Shown: piece by piece, positions 43,184 to 48,655 of the stretch
Layout of the letters: each line of letters opens with the position of its first letter
Position numbering within the stretch: the stretch's first letter is position 1
Origin: Candidatus Avelusimicrobium pullarium
GTDB lineage: Bacteria; Elusimicrobiota; Elusimicrobia; Elusimicrobiales; Elusimicrobiaceae
Direction: 5' to 3'
DNA: 64,000 nt
NCBI GenBank assembly: GCA_944323745.1
Contig: CALUTQ010000002.1
Location: 124,001-188,000 of the forward strand
The notes under the pieces: generated by a model
What the model saw: only the letters and a program-made list of their open reading frames with translations
Database searches by the model: none
Told to the model about the DNA's origin: nothing
Made by a program: the position numbers and the translations under genes

Positions 43184-43217
43184 TTGACAGCCCCCTTTTC
43201 TTCATTTAAACTATAAT
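43184..43217 (+). promoter_or_regulatory. promoter of the ChaN-like gene
   Basis: TTGACA (43184-43189), 17-base spacer, TAAACT (43207-43212) overlapping a TATAAT (43212-43217). Start codon at 43231. Confidence 0.65.
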
Positions 43218-43230
43218 GACGGGGTGTATT

Positions 43231-44280
43231 ATGAAAAAATGTTTTTTAACCCTTTTTCTGCTGCTTTGTGCCCTATGTCAGGCCGCCGCGGCAACGGCCG
43301 CGGAAGAAAGCGCGGAATATAAATATTTCTTTTTCCCGCTGGCGCATTTATGGGAGCAGGACCCGCAAATGCAACCGCTGCTGCTGGAGGGCACCCGCCC
43401 TTTGACGGAAAATTTTGATTATACCGCCCTGTTTGGCGACGCGCAGGTAATACTGCTGGGCGAAATTCACGATAAAGACGTAATCAGCCGGGAAATTAAC
43501 GTTATTTTAAAACAGGCCGCGGGCAAGCCTTCGCTGGGGTTTACCCATCTGGCGACGGAGTTTTTGCTGCAGTCGGCCCAGCCGAATTTTGAAAAAGTCA
43601 AAAATAAAAATATCCATTTAGACAAGCTCAGCCAGGCCATAGATTCCCGTGTTATTTCCTACGATAACGCACTGCTGACAATGAAAATGGCCGAAGATTT
43701 GGGTCTGCAAGTGGTAGGGCTGGACATAGACCGCATTTTAACCCCCGGCGGTACCGCTTGGGCTTTGAGCGAGGAAGGCTTAAAAACCCGCAATCAGGCC
43801 TGGCTAAAAAAAATAACGGATGTGCTCCGCCAAAACCCCCGTGCACGCCTGCTGGTGCATTGCGGGGCGTTGCACAGCCAGTATGTGGCTGATTCGTTAA
43901 GCACCTTGCTTAAACGCAAAGGCATAAAGACGTATGTGATGCTGTTTGAAATCGGCCCCGACCCGAAAGCCGACAAGCATATGACCTGCGAATTTTTCCG
44001 CAGTCTTAATACGCCGCCCGTCTATGTTTGGTACCGTTTTTTCTGCCAGTTTGGCAAAGAAAGAGACAATTTGATTATTCGGGTGCCGCCCCGTTACGTT
44101 AACGTATTGGGGGCAGACAGCATCGTCTACTTTGGCAACCCCAACCCGATGAGCAAAATGAACCCGCAAGCCAAGGACGACTTGTTTAACGATATGCGCT
44201 ATTTTCCGCAGACGGCCTGCCACTTGCATCCGGACTCGGCAGCCTGCCAAAAGCTGCGGCATTGGTCTTTTGTAAAATAA
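43231..44280 (+). CDS. secreted ChaN/Tiki-superfamily protein
   Basis: 349 residues from 43231 (MKKCFLTLFLLLCALCQAAAA), giving a signal peptide; an ATG five codons upstream overlaps the promoter. The first core motif VILLGEIHDKDVISREIN matches the LGExHD element of the ChaN/TraB/Tiki fold, with LATEFLLQ and a later LLVHCGALHSQYVADSLSTLL (the second His region). ChaN-like proteins bind haem, while other Tiki members are proteases; which applies here cannot be read. No lipobox is evident. Monocistronic with its own promoter and terminator. Confidence 0.65.
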   Translation: MKKCFLTLFLLLCALCQAAAATAAEESAEYKYFFFPLAHLWEQDPQMQPLLLEGTRPLTENFDYTALFGDAQVILLGEIHDKDVISREINVILKQAAGKPSLGFTHLATEFLLQSAQPNFEKVKNKNIHLDKLSQAIDSRVISYDNALLTMKMAEDLGLQVVGLDIDRILTPGGTAWALSEEGLKTRNQAWLKKITDVLRQNPRARLLVHCGALHSQYVADSLSTLLKRKGIKTYVMLFEIGPDPKADKHMTCEFFRSLNTPPVYVWYRFFCQFGKERDNLIIRVPPRYVNVLGADSIVYFGNPNPMSKMNPQAKDDLFNDMRYFPQTACHLHPDSAACQKLRHWSFVK

Positions 44281-44441: not shown

Positions 44442-45428
44442 TCAATGTTCTTTGGGCAGGGTGGGCACAAAACGCTTGCCGCTGTTTGCCTTAAAAAAGG
44501 CGGCTGCGTCTGCCCAGGCCGGCTCGTAGCTTTTGCCGTAGTACCATTGGGTTTGTATCAATGCGCCGCTTTGGCGGAGTGAATTGATGACATTGGTCCA
44601 GCGTTCGTTGAGGCCAAGGCCAAAGAGTTCCAACGCTTCCTGCGCGTCCTGCTTGCCCAAATAAGCGTCGGTAGCCAAGGCAAAACTTTGGTCCTTGGCG
44701 CCCACATAATAAAACTGCGGCACGCGCTTCCAATTTTTTAAATCAAACTTTTTACCGCTCCATTCTTTCAGCTTTGCCGTCCCCAGCGGATAGGCCAGTG
44801 CACGGCCGTTCCAACTATCCTGCGGCAAAGGGGCCAACGCGTCCGTGCCGCCGCATACCGCGGCCTGCACGGTTTTGGGATGCAGAAACGTAAAGCGCAT
44901 ACAAAAATCGCCCGACGGGCCAAACCCGTTCAACCAAATTTTTTTGTTGGTTTTTATTCCCTCTTTTTTAAGGCGCTTGCGTGCATCCTTCAGCATAGCC
45001 AGAAATTGCAAATCGGGGCGTTTTAAAGAGCCTTCCCGCACTTGCATCACTTCCCGATTCAAAGAACCGGGCCGCAAACCCGGGGCCGAAGCGACGTGGG
45101 CAAAAACGGGCATCATAACCGGTGTTTGCAGTTTTTCCAGCAAAGGATACGCCTGTAAAAACCCCAGCGCACCGGCCGTTTGGTCCGCCCGCCCGCCGGT
45201 AATTTTAAAAAGAGCGGGGTCTGTTTCGGCCAAAATAAAATATTTTTTATCCCGTTCCAAACCGCGCGGCACGGCTAAAAAATAGCCGTTTGAAAACCCT
45301 TCCTGCGGGTTGGGGCCGACGTATTGTATCCACAATTTATCGGTGTAAATTTCCCCCGTGCGGCTTTGGGCAGGCAACGCCGCGGGCAAACATAAAAAAG
45401 CCAGCAGTAAAAAGAAAAGTTTTTTCAT
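44442..45428 (-). CDS. secreted alpha/beta-hydrolase
   Basis: 328 residues from 45428 (MKKLFFLLLAFLCLPAALPAQ), a clear signal peptide; AAGGGGG lies upstream. The nucleophile elbow is KIWLNGFGPSGDFCMRFTFLHP, with Ser in GPSGD, the pattern of PHB-depolymerase-like and related esterases that continue with RFTxLHP. A likely acid/His part follows (FYYVGAKDQSFA, with the aspartate). Substrate unknown. The -10 TACAAT within TGCTACAAT lies about 30 bases upstream of the start. Confidence 0.65.
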   Translation of the reverse strand: MKKLFFLLLAFLCLPAALPAQSRTGEIYTDKLWIQYVGPNPQEGFSNGYFLAVPRGLERDKKYFILAETDPALFKITGGRADQTAGALGFLQAYPLLEKLQTPVMMPVFAHVASAPGLRPGSLNREVMQVREGSLKRPDLQFLAMLKDARKRLKKEGIKTNKKIWLNGFGPSGDFCMRFTFLHPKTVQAAVCGGTDALAPLPQDSWNGRALAYPLGTAKLKEWSGKKFDLKNWKRVPQFYYVGAKDQSFALATDAYLGKQDAQEALELFGLGLNERWTNVINSLRQSGALIQTQWYYGKSYEPAWADAAAFFKANSGKRFVPTLPKEH

Positions 45429-45530
45429 ATTTTCCCCCTTCTCAAGCATTGTAGCATATAACGGACGCTTTCTCCGCCCGCCGGCACAGGGCACCCAAAC
45501 GCTTGCGGACGGCGGAAACAAAAACGACAG

Positions 45531-45559
45531 AAAAAACCCCGCCGTTAAGCGGGGTTTTT
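45531..45559 (-). terminator. terminator of the rpmH-jag operon
   Basis: AAAACCCCGC / GCGGGGTTTT with a 5-6 base loop, 11 bases after the jag stop. Confidence 0.88.
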
Positions 45560-45569
45560 AATGCACAGA

Positions 45570-47054
45570 TTATTTTTGTTCTTCGTGCTGCGGCGTATCA
45601 AACAGCGGGCCGCACGTATTAGGCTGCGGTTGCACAGGCTGGGCAGCAGGTTCGGCAGCCGGAGCTTGCGCCGTTACCGCTTCGGGCGCGGCCGTTGTTA
45701 CGGCAGGAGCCGCTGGCTGGTTTTCCGCTGCGGGAGCCGTCTGGCAAGCGCACGGGGCACTTTGGCTGCAAGAACAGTTGTCCTGCGCCGTTTGCTCGGC
45801 TTGGGCGGTTTGCCCACAGGTGCAAGCAGCTTGCGCAGGGGTCTGGTCTTCGGCCGCTTGGCACGCACAGGCGGGCTGAGCCGGAGCCGGTTCCGTCACG
45901 CTTTGGCAAGCGCAGGCGGGCTGGGCTTGTTCTTGCGTGTTGACCGTTTCGGCAGACGGGGTTTGCACATTGGCGGCAGGGGCCGTCTGCGGCTGATTTT
46001 CCGCCGCGGGAGCCGTCTGACAAACGCACGGGGCGGCTTGTTCGCAAGCGCAGCCGGGCTGAGCCGTTTGGTCGGCCTGGGCGGCAGAGGCCGCTTCGGA
46101 GGCTACGGCTGCATTTGCGGCAGCGGGCTGTACGGCGGCAGGCTCCGCCTTTTGAACGGGCTGGTCGGCCGGGCGGGGACGCAAAGTTACTTTGCGCCAC
46201 TGGCCTTCCCCTTCGGAAACGGTGATGACAAATTCGTTGTTTTCCGCGGCGCGGTGGATATAGCGGCGCAGTTGCGCGCTCATCGGGCGGAAGCGGTAGA
46301 CGCTGTAGCCGTTTTTGATTTGATTAATGCCATATTCCAAGTCGGCATTAATTTTATCCTCGGCTTTGCGCCAATAGTTTTGCGTATCGGCAATGACGGA
46401 AATGGGTTTGTCAAAATGGCGGCTGATGCTAAGCGTGGCCAAATATTGCAAAGATTCCAGCGTTTTGCCTTCTTTGCCGATGACGATGGCCGGATGGTCG
46501 CAGTCAAAGGTAAGCAAAATGCGGTGTTGTTTTTCGTCCCACCAGGCGTTCAGGTTTTCCACCTTAACACCCATATGTTCCAGCACGTTGGCCAAATAGG
46601 TTTTGGCTTCCTGCAGCGGGGCTTTTAAATAGTCGGGGATAACCGCGTTTTGAATTTCGGGGCTGGGCAGCAATTGCGCTTCGTTGGCTTTGGGGGCTTT
46701 GTCGGCGCCGCTGTGGCGGGCCCCGTAGGCACGGCGGCCGCCGCGCTTAATTTCGCGCACGCCGAAATCGTCGTTTTTGCGGGAGCGGGAAGAAGAACGC
46801 CCGCCGCGGCCGCGGCTATTGGAGCGTTTCTTTTTAGGCACGTCCATATAAATTTGTGCGTCCAAATTGTCAGACACCCAGCGTTTTTGCCGCAATTCCA
46901 CCACGGCGTTGCGGGCACCGATGCCCAAAAAACCTTTGCGCGGGTTTTCCAGAATTTTTACTTCTACCTGGTCACGGCGCAAACCCATTTTTTTCAGCCC
47001 TTTTTCAATGGCTTGGGCTACTTCTTTTGCTTCTACGGTTACTTTATGAGGCAT
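45570..47054 (-). CDS. jag: Jag/SpoIIIJ-associated RNA-binding protein with Cys-x-Cys-rich tail
   Basis: 494 residues, about twice the usual length. Jag_N domain (1-56, ENPRKGFLGIGARNA), basic Arg/Ser linker (75-115), KH domain (about 155-225, AIVIGKEGKTLESLQYL) and R3H domain (235-292, RRYIHRAAENNEFVITVSEGEG). From about residue 295 the protein is Ala/Gln/Pro-rich with seven Cys-x-Cys pairs (335, 343, 381, 396, 411, 427, 435, first Cys of each) and a last Cys481. Two 15-20 residue blocks (CQTAPAAENQP) are repeated. The tail has no family precedent I know and looks able to bind metal (inference). Follows yidC, its normal partner. Confidence 0.9.
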   Translation of the reverse strand: MPHKVTVEAKEVAQAIEKGLKKMGLRRDQVEVKILENPRKGFLGIGARNAVVELRQKRWVSDNLDAQIYMDVPKKKRSNSRGRGGRSSSRSRKNDDFGVREIKRGGRRAYGARHSGADKAPKANEAQLLPSPEIQNAVIPDYLKAPLQEAKTYLANVLEHMGVKVENLNAWWDEKQHRILLTFDCDHPAIVIGKEGKTLESLQYLATLSISRHFDKPISVIADTQNYWRKAEDKINADLEYGINQIKNGYSVYRFRPMSAQLRRYIHRAAENNEFVITVSEGEGQWRKVTLRPRPADQPVQKAEPAAVQPAAANAAVASEAASAAQADQTAQPGCACEQAAPCVCQTAPAAENQPQTAPAANVQTPSAETVNTQEQAQPACACQSVTEPAPAQPACACQAAEDQTPAQAACTCGQTAQAEQTAQDNCSCSQSAPCACQTAPAAENQPAAPAVTTAAPEAVTAQAPAAEPAAQPVQPQPNTCGPLFDTPQHEEQK

Positions 47055-47071: not shown

Positions 47072-48655
47072 CTATTTCGCATTTGCGATTTTTTTATTTG
47101 CCAAGGTCTGAATGCCGAACGTAATCAGACTGTTGGTCAACCAATACAGCACCAGGCCGGACGGAAAGTTCATAAACAGCAGCGTAAAAATAAGCGGCAT
47201 ATATTTAAACATTGCGGCCTGGGCGGGGTCCATTCCGGCGGGCATAGTGGCCCGCTGTTGGAAAAACATCACGGCGCCCATTAAAATAGGCAGAATGTAG
47301 TACGGGTCTTTGGAAGACAGATCCGTAATCCACAGCACAAACCCGGCCCCGTGCAAGGACCAAGACGTGCGCAAGGCATTAAACAGCGCCAAGAAAATAG
47401 GCAGCTGTATTAAAAGCGGCAAACAGCCCGAAAGCGGATTGATTTTATGCTTTTGGTATAAAGCCAGCATTTCGCGGTTAAGCGCTTCGGGGTTGCCTTT
47501 ATATTTTTCCTGCAGGCGTTTCATTTCCGGCTGCACCTTTTTCATCTGCGCGCCGGACTTGAGCGACATCAGCGTAAACTTAAACAAAATAAGCTGCAAC
47601 AGCACCGTCAGCATAATAATAGCCACGCCGTAGTTGCCCGTCCAACTGTAAAACAGCTCCAGCACGTTGCGGGCCAAACGCCCCAGCGCGCCGAAGAAAC
47701 CAAATTCAATACTGCGGCTCAAGTGATAAGGCAGTTTTTCAAAGGCCTGATAATCTTTGGGGCCGAAGTAAAAATCGGAATTTAACGTAAGCGAGGCTTT
47801 GGCCGCCAATTCCTGCGCGGGCACGTTAATTAACAGCTGGGGGCCTTTTACGTCCCCTTCGCCAAACAAGCCCCACATCCGTTTTTGTTTGCCGATAATC
47901 TGTTTGTCGGTTTTTAAGGTGCCGGCCGTCCAATTCTGCGGAATTAAAACGCTTAAGAAATAGCGGTTTTGCACGCCGGCCCACAGCCAGTCTTTGCCGG
48001 AAGCCGGGGACTCGTCGTCCGAGGCAAACTTAACCAGCGTCGGGTTTTTCTTGCCCTGTTCCTGAATCAGATAGACGGCTTTGCTTTCGCGTTCGTTGTC
48101 TTTCAGTTCGCTTTTGGTGGTGGACAAACCGGGCCCGAAGTTAAAGGCAAAAGCGGGCAGCTGCACCTCGTGCCCGTTTTTGTTGTTAAACGTCAGGCTG
48201 AGGTGATTGATGCCGTTTTCGTTAAAGCGGTAAGTTTTGATTACGTCCACGCCGGGCAGCAAAGAGGCCGTAAACGAAATGGAATCTTTGGTGCGGGCAG
48301 ACTCGGCAAAGTCCAGCTGGGGCAGGGTGGCAAAGTAGCCTTCGCCGGTATAGGGGGTTAAATCCAAATCGCCCAATGCGTCGCGGAACAAAAAGGTTTT
48401 TATACCGGCGCCTTTGGAAGAGAAAGTAATGTTTGCCGTGGGAGCGTCAAACGTGATGAGTTCTTCGGGCAAAGAGGAAGGCTGTGTTTTGGAAACGGCG
48501 GCAAAGTCCGCCTGGGTCAGTTCTTGTTTGGCCTGGGCCAATTCTTGCTCGGCAGCTTGTTTTTGTTTTTGCATACGGGGAATGGTTACAAACTGATTGT
48601 AACCCGTCACCAGCAGCAAAAAGAACAACGCTGCGAGTAAAAAGTTTCTGTTCAT
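47072..48655 (-). CDS. yidC: membrane protein insertase YidC
   Basis: 527 residues. N-terminal signal-anchor (MNRNFLLAALFFLLLVTGYN), large periplasmic beta domain (about 60-330) as in other double-membrane bacteria, then five helices with the 60KD_IMP core: GNYGVAIIMLTVLLQLILFKF, PLSGCLPLLIQLPIFLALFN and SGLVLYWLTNSLITFGIQT. It inserts proteins into the inner membrane, alone or with SecYEG. Order rpmH-rnpA-yidD-yidC-jag is the conserved one. Confidence 0.96.
   Translation of the reverse strand: MNRNFLLAALFFLLLVTGYNQFVTIPRMQKQKQAAEQELAQAKQELTQADFAAVSKTQPSSLPEELITFDAPTANITFSSKGAGIKTFLFRDALGDLDLTPYTGEGYFATLPQLDFAESARTKDSISFTASLLPGVDVIKTYRFNENGINHLSLTFNNKNGHEVQLPAFAFNFGPGLSTTKSELKDNERESKAVYLIQEQGKKNPTLVKFASDDESPASGKDWLWAGVQNRYFLSVLIPQNWTAGTLKTDKQIIGKQKRMWGLFGEGDVKGPQLLINVPAQELAAKASLTLNSDFYFGPKDYQAFEKLPYHLSRSIEFGFFGALGRLARNVLELFYSWTGNYGVAIIMLTVLLQLILFKFTLMSLKSGAQMKKVQPEMKRLQEKYKGNPEALNREMLALYQKHKINPLSGCLPLLIQLPIFLALFNALRTSWSLHGAGFVLWITDLSSKDPYYILPILMGAVMFFQQRATMPAGMDPAQAAMFKYMPLIFTLLFMNFPSGLVLYWLTNSLITFGIQTLANKKIANAK

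What the first reader, a model, noticed from the sequence alone, without database searches (positions are those of the whole stretch)
45570..46170. Jag protein with a 200-residue tail carrying seven Cys-x-Cys motifs
Jag is normally a compact RNA-binding protein. Here about 200 Ala/Gln/Pro-rich residues follow the R3H domain and carry seven CxC pairs plus one Cys, with internal duplicated blocks. Cytoplasmic low-complexity sequence this rich in paired cysteines suggests metal binding or redox sensing attached to an RNA-binding, YidC-linked protein.
Basis: partly seen in the sequence, partly recalled or inferred. Interest (0 to 1): 0.62.

Follow-up and report, generated by a model that had tools for sequence, protein, structure and literature searches.

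The report
RNA-binding Jag protein with cysteine-pair tail
A family of gut bacteria has added a floppy tail to the RNA-binding protein Jag; pairs of cysteines (Cys-x-Cys) have been gained in that tail repeatedly and resist mutation, so it is probably a functional metal-binding or thiol-sensing add-on and not random low-complexity sequence, although no function has been measured.

Summary
The Jag/KhpB gene (45570-47054, minus strand, 494 aa, directly after yidC) has Jag_N, KH and R3H domains, then a 199-residue Ala/Gln/Pro tail with 15 Cys in seven CxC pairs plus one CGPLF. An AlphaFold2 model gives the tail no structure.

The genome is from the gut genus of Ca. Avelusimicrobium (Elusimicrobiaceae). 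Every complete Jag examined in this genus has a tail; Cys counts run from 0 to 15. The nearest relative has 11 Cys and 4 CxC. A sister genus has its own versions (up to 19 Cys, 8 CxC), and one genus of a neighbouring family has smaller ones. Elsewhere in the phylum, Jag usually stops just after R3H.

Three results support selection over drift. CxC pairs occur 75 times against 12.6 expected across the genus. Aligned tail cysteines are 87% identical against about 62% for other residues. CxC-rich tails (three or more) need at least six changes on the family tree. A C-terminal CGPLF or CxCGPLF motif is conserved across most of the genus; CxCGPLF[DE] was found only at jag.

Best reading: a disordered regulatory tail whose Cys pairs form metal-thiolate sites. 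Thiol-redox sensing and partner docking remain open. No function is shown.

The parts
45570..47054 (-). jag/khpB (eloR) gene, 494 aa
   Evidence: Pfam Jag_N, KH_KhpA-B, R3H; NCBIfam NF041568 Jag_EloR 144.5 bits, cut-off 145
46170..47054 (-). conserved core: Jag_N, basic Arg/Ser/Gly linker (residues 71-121, net charge +12), KH, R3H
   Evidence: AlphaFold2 pLDDT mostly 85-97 in the domains, 43-49 in most of the linker
45573..46169 (-). C-terminal low-complexity tail, residues 296-494, net charge -17, 15 Cys, 7 CxC
   Evidence: disordered in the AlphaFold2 model (pLDDT about 40-50, no secondary structure)
46020..46052 (-). CxC-x5-CxC module 1 (CACEQAAPCVC, residues 335-345)
45861..45914 (-). CxC pairs 3 and 4 (residues 381-383 and 396-398)
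45816..45824 (-). CxC pair 5 (CTC, residues 411-413, followed by G)
45744..45776 (-). CxC-x5-CxC module 2 (CSCSQSAPCAC, residues 427-437)
45600..45614 (-). CGPLF motif, residues 481-485; genus-wide C-terminal motif, often CxCGPLF[DE]
   Evidence: GPLF in 47 of 60 genus Jag rows (list); CxCGPLF[DE] pattern found in 25 of 341 phylum genomes, all of this genus, all at jag
45715..45808 (-). copy A of a 94-nt internal duplication
45991..46084 (-). copy B of the 94-nt internal duplication, 80% identical to copy A
45532..45559 (-). terminator-like hairpin after the jag stop codon
   Evidence: 12 pairs, then a T run
47072..48655 (-). yidC, immediately upstream of jag
   Evidence: Pfam 60KD_IMP and YidC_periplas

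Best explanation
This is an ordinary Jag/KhpB RNA-binding protein carrying a disordered C-terminal regulatory tail that arose within the Elusimicrobiales. Shown: the tail is lineage-specific, under purifying selection, ends in a conserved CGPLF-type short motif in most of the genus, and has gained and duplicated Cys pairs repeatedly; aligned cysteines are seldom substituted. Inferred: the Cys pairs, often grouped in fours (CxC-x5-CxC here, CxC-x8-CxC in the sister genus, C-x7-C-x8-CxC in other species), act as metal-thiolate sites (Zn(II), Fe(II) or Cu(I)). Metal occupancy would fold or cross-link the tail and so change the availability or oligomeric state of Jag/KhpA, or its contact with a membrane or ribosome partner docked through the GPLF motif. 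The number of sites would be free to vary, as in metal sponges and metallothioneins, which fits the elastic Cys count.
For: Genus-wide CxC is 75 observed against 12.6 expected, and distance 2 is by far the favoured spacing. In ungapped tail columns of close pairs, upstream of CGPLF, Cys is identical in 81 of 93 against about 62% for the common tail residues (Fisher p about 3e-7), although Cys codons have few synonymous neighbours. More Cys differences are gaps (32) than substitutions (12), as expected for block gain and loss. The residue inside CxC varies widely (A, S, D, T and others) and the synonymous codons of CxCGPLF vary, so selection acts on the protein and not on a DNA repeat. Tails with at least 3 CxC appear in scattered lineages: at least 6 changes among 75 Jag proteins. 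Cys-rich members of the sister genus carry CxC-LTAESTS-CxC modules and Cys-poor members keep the 2-Cys core CVLTAESTNC; by DNA pattern this motif is found only in that genus, and at jag wherever jag was located. Tail dN/dS is 0.13-0.44.
Against: No metal or redox measurement exists. Seven species in one clade, and several others, have no tail Cys at all, so the Cys cannot be needed for the core Jag function. GPLF persists without any adjacent Cys in three species, which suggests that protein docking may be the older function. The tail matches no Pfam or PDB entry. Cys count tracks tail length (rho 0.88) and tail GC3 (rho 0.60), so part of the variation follows expansion of the low-complexity sequence.
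Confidence: 0.4

Rival explanations
1. Thiol-redox sensor: in these anaerobes the CxC dithiols stay reduced; on exposure to oxygen or disulfide stress they form strained intramolecular or intermolecular disulfides that cross-link Jag and change RNA regulation.
For: CxC is a known dithiol motif (general knowledge), and many separate pairs would give graded cross-linking. The same sequence evidence as for metal binding applies.
Against: Grouping of Cys in fours with recurring spacings is more typical of metal sites than of single redox pairs. No link to oxygen-stress genes was tested.
Confidence: 0.25
2. The tail is a docking arm: the functional elements are short linear motifs (CGPLF[DE]; ADFVPGVIGED in the second clade; CVLTAEST in the sister genus) that tether Jag to a partner such as YidC, SecA, the ribosome or cell-elongation machinery. 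Cys residues are part of, or accessories to, these motifs, and the extra CxC copies are by-products of linker expansion.
For: GPLF is the most conserved part of the tail (47 of 60 genus rows) and is kept in three species without adjacent Cys. AlphaFold2 confidence rises slightly there (block mean 56 against about 43). Motifs differ by clade.
Against: Does not explain why new pairs are CxC so often (75 against 12.6) or why Cys outside CGPLF resist substitution (81 of 93).
Confidence: 0.22
3. Drift of a low-complexity repeat: the tail grows and shrinks by replication slippage and the Cys codons are carried along with no function.
For: Cys count varies from 0 to 15 and correlates with tail length and GC3. 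A 94-nt duplication doubled one module here.
Against: Cys conservation exceeds that of neighbouring residues; CxC excess across the genus; parallel gains in at least two genera; tail dN/dS well below 1; no comparable low-complexity Cys-rich protein in 744 kb of the genome.
Confidence: 0.1
4. The long open reading frame on the opposite strand (45561-46628, plus strand, 355 aa) is the real gene and the Cys tail is its shadow.
For: It is open for 355 codons.
Against: The antisense frame is broken by up to 13 stops in relatives, whereas the Jag frame stays open.
Confidence: 0.01

Closest known systems
Jag / KhpB / EloR (NCBIfam NF041568, Pfam PF14804 + PF13083 + PF01424)
   Same: Same three domains, order and yidC-jag neighbourhood; a separate KhpA partner gene is present in the genome.
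   Different: Adds a tail of about 200 residues; Jag elsewhere in the phylum usually ends 4-14 residues after R3H, and in Streptococcus pneumoniae EloR the R3H domain is at the C-terminal end (PMC6403258).
PacL1 (DUF1490) of Mycobacterium tuberculosis
   Same: Low-complexity Glu/Ala region (the abstract says Gln/Ala), disordered segment and C-terminal metal-binding motif that binds Zn 1:1 (PMC9374683). A working analogue of a disordered arm that carries metal.
   Different: Asp/His ligands, a membrane anchor and pairing with a P-type ATPase; no homology.
SecA C-terminal SEC-C zinc motif (CxC-x8-CH; from general knowledge)
   Same: CxC-x8-C spacing on a flexible C-terminal arm of a protein-export factor; the sister genus has CxC-x8-CxC.
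   Different: No SEC-C (PF02810) match in any Jag tested; the SEC-C matches in this genome are an 882-aa frame (SecA-sized) and a 140-aa frame, not Jag.
Metallothioneins and synthetic CxC chelating peptides (from general knowledge)
   Same: Multiple CxC pairs with spacers and an elastic number of sites.
   Different: Cys density is about 7.5% here, far below metallothioneins; attached to an RNA-binding protein.

Membership tests
Jag/KhpB/EloR | Jag_N domain | tested here: met
   PF14804, 58.1 bits, cut-off 25
Jag/KhpB/EloR | type II KH domain of KhpA/KhpB | tested here: met
   PF13083, 37 bits, cut-off 32.1
Jag/KhpB/EloR | R3H domain | tested here: met
   PF01424, 42.3 bits, cut-off 26.8
Jag/KhpB/EloR | equivalog score for Jag_EloR | tested here: inconclusive
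   144.5 bits against cut-off 145 for the window; tailed relatives L110 (153.7) and L148 (149.1) pass
Jag/KhpB/EloR | gene next to yidC | tested here: met
   yidC 47072-48655 directly upstream
SEC-C zinc motif proteins | match to PF02810 | tested here: not met
   no match in the tail at E 10 or in L148, L110, L162 at E 5
Metallothionein | short protein with roughly 20-30% Cys | tested here: not met
   15 Cys in 199 residues, within a 494-aa protein
Metallothionein | binds several metal ions through thiolates | not testable with these tools
   needs protein biochemistry
PacL/DUF1490 | DUF1490 domain with P-type ATPase partner gene | tested here: not met
   Pfam finds only Jag domains; neighbours are yidC and a gene without Pfam match

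The most novel reading that the evidence does not exclude
A metal- or redox-responsive RNA regulator: in Elusimicrobiaceae the KhpA/KhpB system has acquired a tunable array of thiolate sites on a disordered arm, repeatedly expanded, so that metal or redox state directly controls a post-transcriptional regulator encoded next to yidC.
Probability: 0.3. Interest if true: 0.72.

Novelty: new variant of a known kind. Interest (0 to 1): 0.46.

Why it matters
Jag/KhpB is widespread and its input signal is poorly understood. A clade in which the protein gained a conserved docking-type motif and repeatedly gained Cys pairs offers a natural experiment on what KhpB senses or binds. It is also an example of selection on composition and motif copy number in a bacterial disordered region, measurable because 66 related genomes are held.

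Tried and rejected
Tandem-repeat origin: none found by TRF. Known metal-binding domain in the tail: no Pfam, no NCBIfam beyond Jag_EloR and weak core matches, no PDB sequence match. SEC-C replacement for SecA: SEC-C is still present elsewhere in an 882-aa, SecA-sized frame. Cys tail on KhpA too: KhpA is 80 aa without tail or Cys. CGPLF in other proteins of this genome: six DNA matches; one is Jag, the others lie in no ORF or in short ORFs not recognisable as genes. Antisense ORF: not conserved. DNA-repeat explanation of CxC: middle residue and codons vary. A correlation of Cys-rich tails with metal or oxygen-stress genes was considered but not run, because only 6-10 changes on the tree give too little power. 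Literature searches found no report of Cys-rich Jag tails; subscription papers are not covered. Rieske-like and IscA-like CxCGxxF resemblances of CxCGPLF are from memory only and were not pursued as membership.

Full report
What is there. The jag gene (45570-47054, minus strand, 494 aa) follows yidC (47072-48655) and ends just before a terminator-like hairpin (45532-45559). Jag_N, KH and R3H are all above their Pfam cut-offs. After R3H come 199 residues that are mostly Ala, Gln, Pro, Thr and Glu, with 15 Cys: seven CxC and one CGPLF. AlphaFold2 with 62 sequences gives the domains pLDDT mostly 85-97 and the tail 40-50 with no secondary structure, rising slightly at the GPLF block. The linker between Jag_N and KH is strongly basic (net +12 in residues 71-121) while the tail is acidic (net -17).

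Is it more than chance? Shuffles of this one tail give seven CxC in 2 of 100,000 trials, but a 94-nt duplication makes that figure too strong. The better test uses relatives. Across 60 distinct genus tails (8,095 residues, 255 Cys) there are 75 CxC against 12.6 expected; adjacent Cys (32) and distances 8 and 9 (27, 21) are also enriched against about 11 each. In close pairs, in ungapped tail columns upstream of CGPLF, Cys is kept in 81 of 93 cases, against about 62% for the common tail residues (p about 3e-7). Most other Cys differences are gaps, that is, block insertions or deletions. Tail dN/dS is 0.13-0.44 in 15 pairs, against 0.02-0.18 for the core. In 744 kb of the own genome no other ORF has as many CxC, and the two next ones have hydrophobic, signal-peptide-like N-terminal stretches.

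Distribution. 63 of 66 genomes of the genus have a jag match, and every complete one examined has a tail; those tabulated are 80 to 203 residues long with 0 to 15 Cys, and one further short tail of 53 residues has none (L013). The nearest relative (89% identical) has 11 Cys and 4 CxC. Other Cys-rich tails (10-14 Cys) occur in separate branches of the genus. The sister genus g15 of the same family has tails with up to 19 Cys and 8 CxC, and a conserved motif of the form CDCVLTAESTSCEC that survives as CVLTAESTNC in Cys-poor members. By DNA pattern that motif is found only in g15, and at jag in every genome where jag was located (three further genomes with hits were not checked for jag). Genus g10 of the neighbouring family also has small CxC clusters (L070, L162). 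In 20 Jag proteins from elsewhere in the phylum, 19 have a recognisable R3H end and stop 4-14 residues after it with no Cys. Some members of the neighbouring family have Cys-free or nearly Cys-free tails. Parsimony on a core tree needs at least 6 changes for three or more CxC, 10 for any CxC and 6 for GPLF among 75 proteins. So the long tail is an innovation within this order, and CxC enrichment recurred.

The C-terminal motif. GPLF, mostly as CGPLF or CxCGPLF followed by D, E, Q or A, lies about 8-25 residues from the end in 47 of 60 genus rows. CxCGPLF[DE] occurs in 25 of 341 phylum genomes, all in this genus, all at jag, with varied synonymous codons. Three species keep GPLF without Cys next to it. 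A clade of seven species lacks both GPLF and all tail Cys, and most of its members carry a different shared C-terminal motif. The pattern is that of short linear motifs on a fast-evolving arm.

How it probably works. Jag is expected to act with KhpA, which is present (80 aa, no tail), as an RNA regulator, as described for EloR/KhpA in Streptococcus pneumoniae (PMC6403258). The disordered tail would be a regulatory arm: GPLF docks a partner, and the Cys pairs provide thiolate sites. I favour metal binding because the Cys tend to come in groups of four (CxC-x5-CxC twice here; CxC-x8-CxC in g15; C-x7-C-x8-CxC in several genus members) and because a variable number of sites suits a sponge or sensor. 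A bacterial precedent for a disordered, low-complexity arm with a terminal metal motif is PacL1 (PMC9374683). Redox sensing by CxC dithiols is the main rival, and docking with Cys as accessories is the next. Pure drift is disfavoured but not impossible. Every step from 'constrained Cys pairs' to 'metal' or 'redox' is inference.

Limits. All genomes here are assemblies, many of them from metagenomes, with one per species, so strain-level expansion and contraction could not be examined. Low-complexity alignments are uncertain. The Jag families of other phyla were not surveyed for similar tails. No function, metal or redox state is measured.

Noticed in passing
window 46690-46845: The Jag linker between Jag_N and KH is Arg/Ser/Gly-rich (KKKRSNSRGRGGRSSSRSRK), net +12 and predicted disordered, so a basic linker and an acidic tail flank the KH-R3H unit.
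   Followed up: partly
L058, L059, L117, L118, L120, L121: A clade of the genus without tail Cys and without GPLF shares another C-terminal motif (ETPTQ...AT.T.A.TV....EH.VEEHSVVVTT).
   Followed up: partly
L014-L030 and relatives: The second major clade has ADFVPGVIGED just after R3H, and many of its members have ESCSCCSGE in the tail; both are absent from the window's clade.
   Followed up: no
window 44442-45521 (-) and 43216-44280 (+): Two genes lie between jag and mnmE: one without any Pfam match, one with a sub-threshold ChaN-like match.
   Followed up: no
PDB 9lrg_AA / 9lri: A Jag-related protein is a chain of what looks like a large solved complex (judging by its chain name); no paper on it was found in the library.
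   Followed up: partly
L085:2788-3705 (same genome): A probably secreted 306-residue ORF with 16 Cys and 4 CxC, most of them in a C-terminal Cys-rich region; tied runner-up for CxC count.
   Followed up: no
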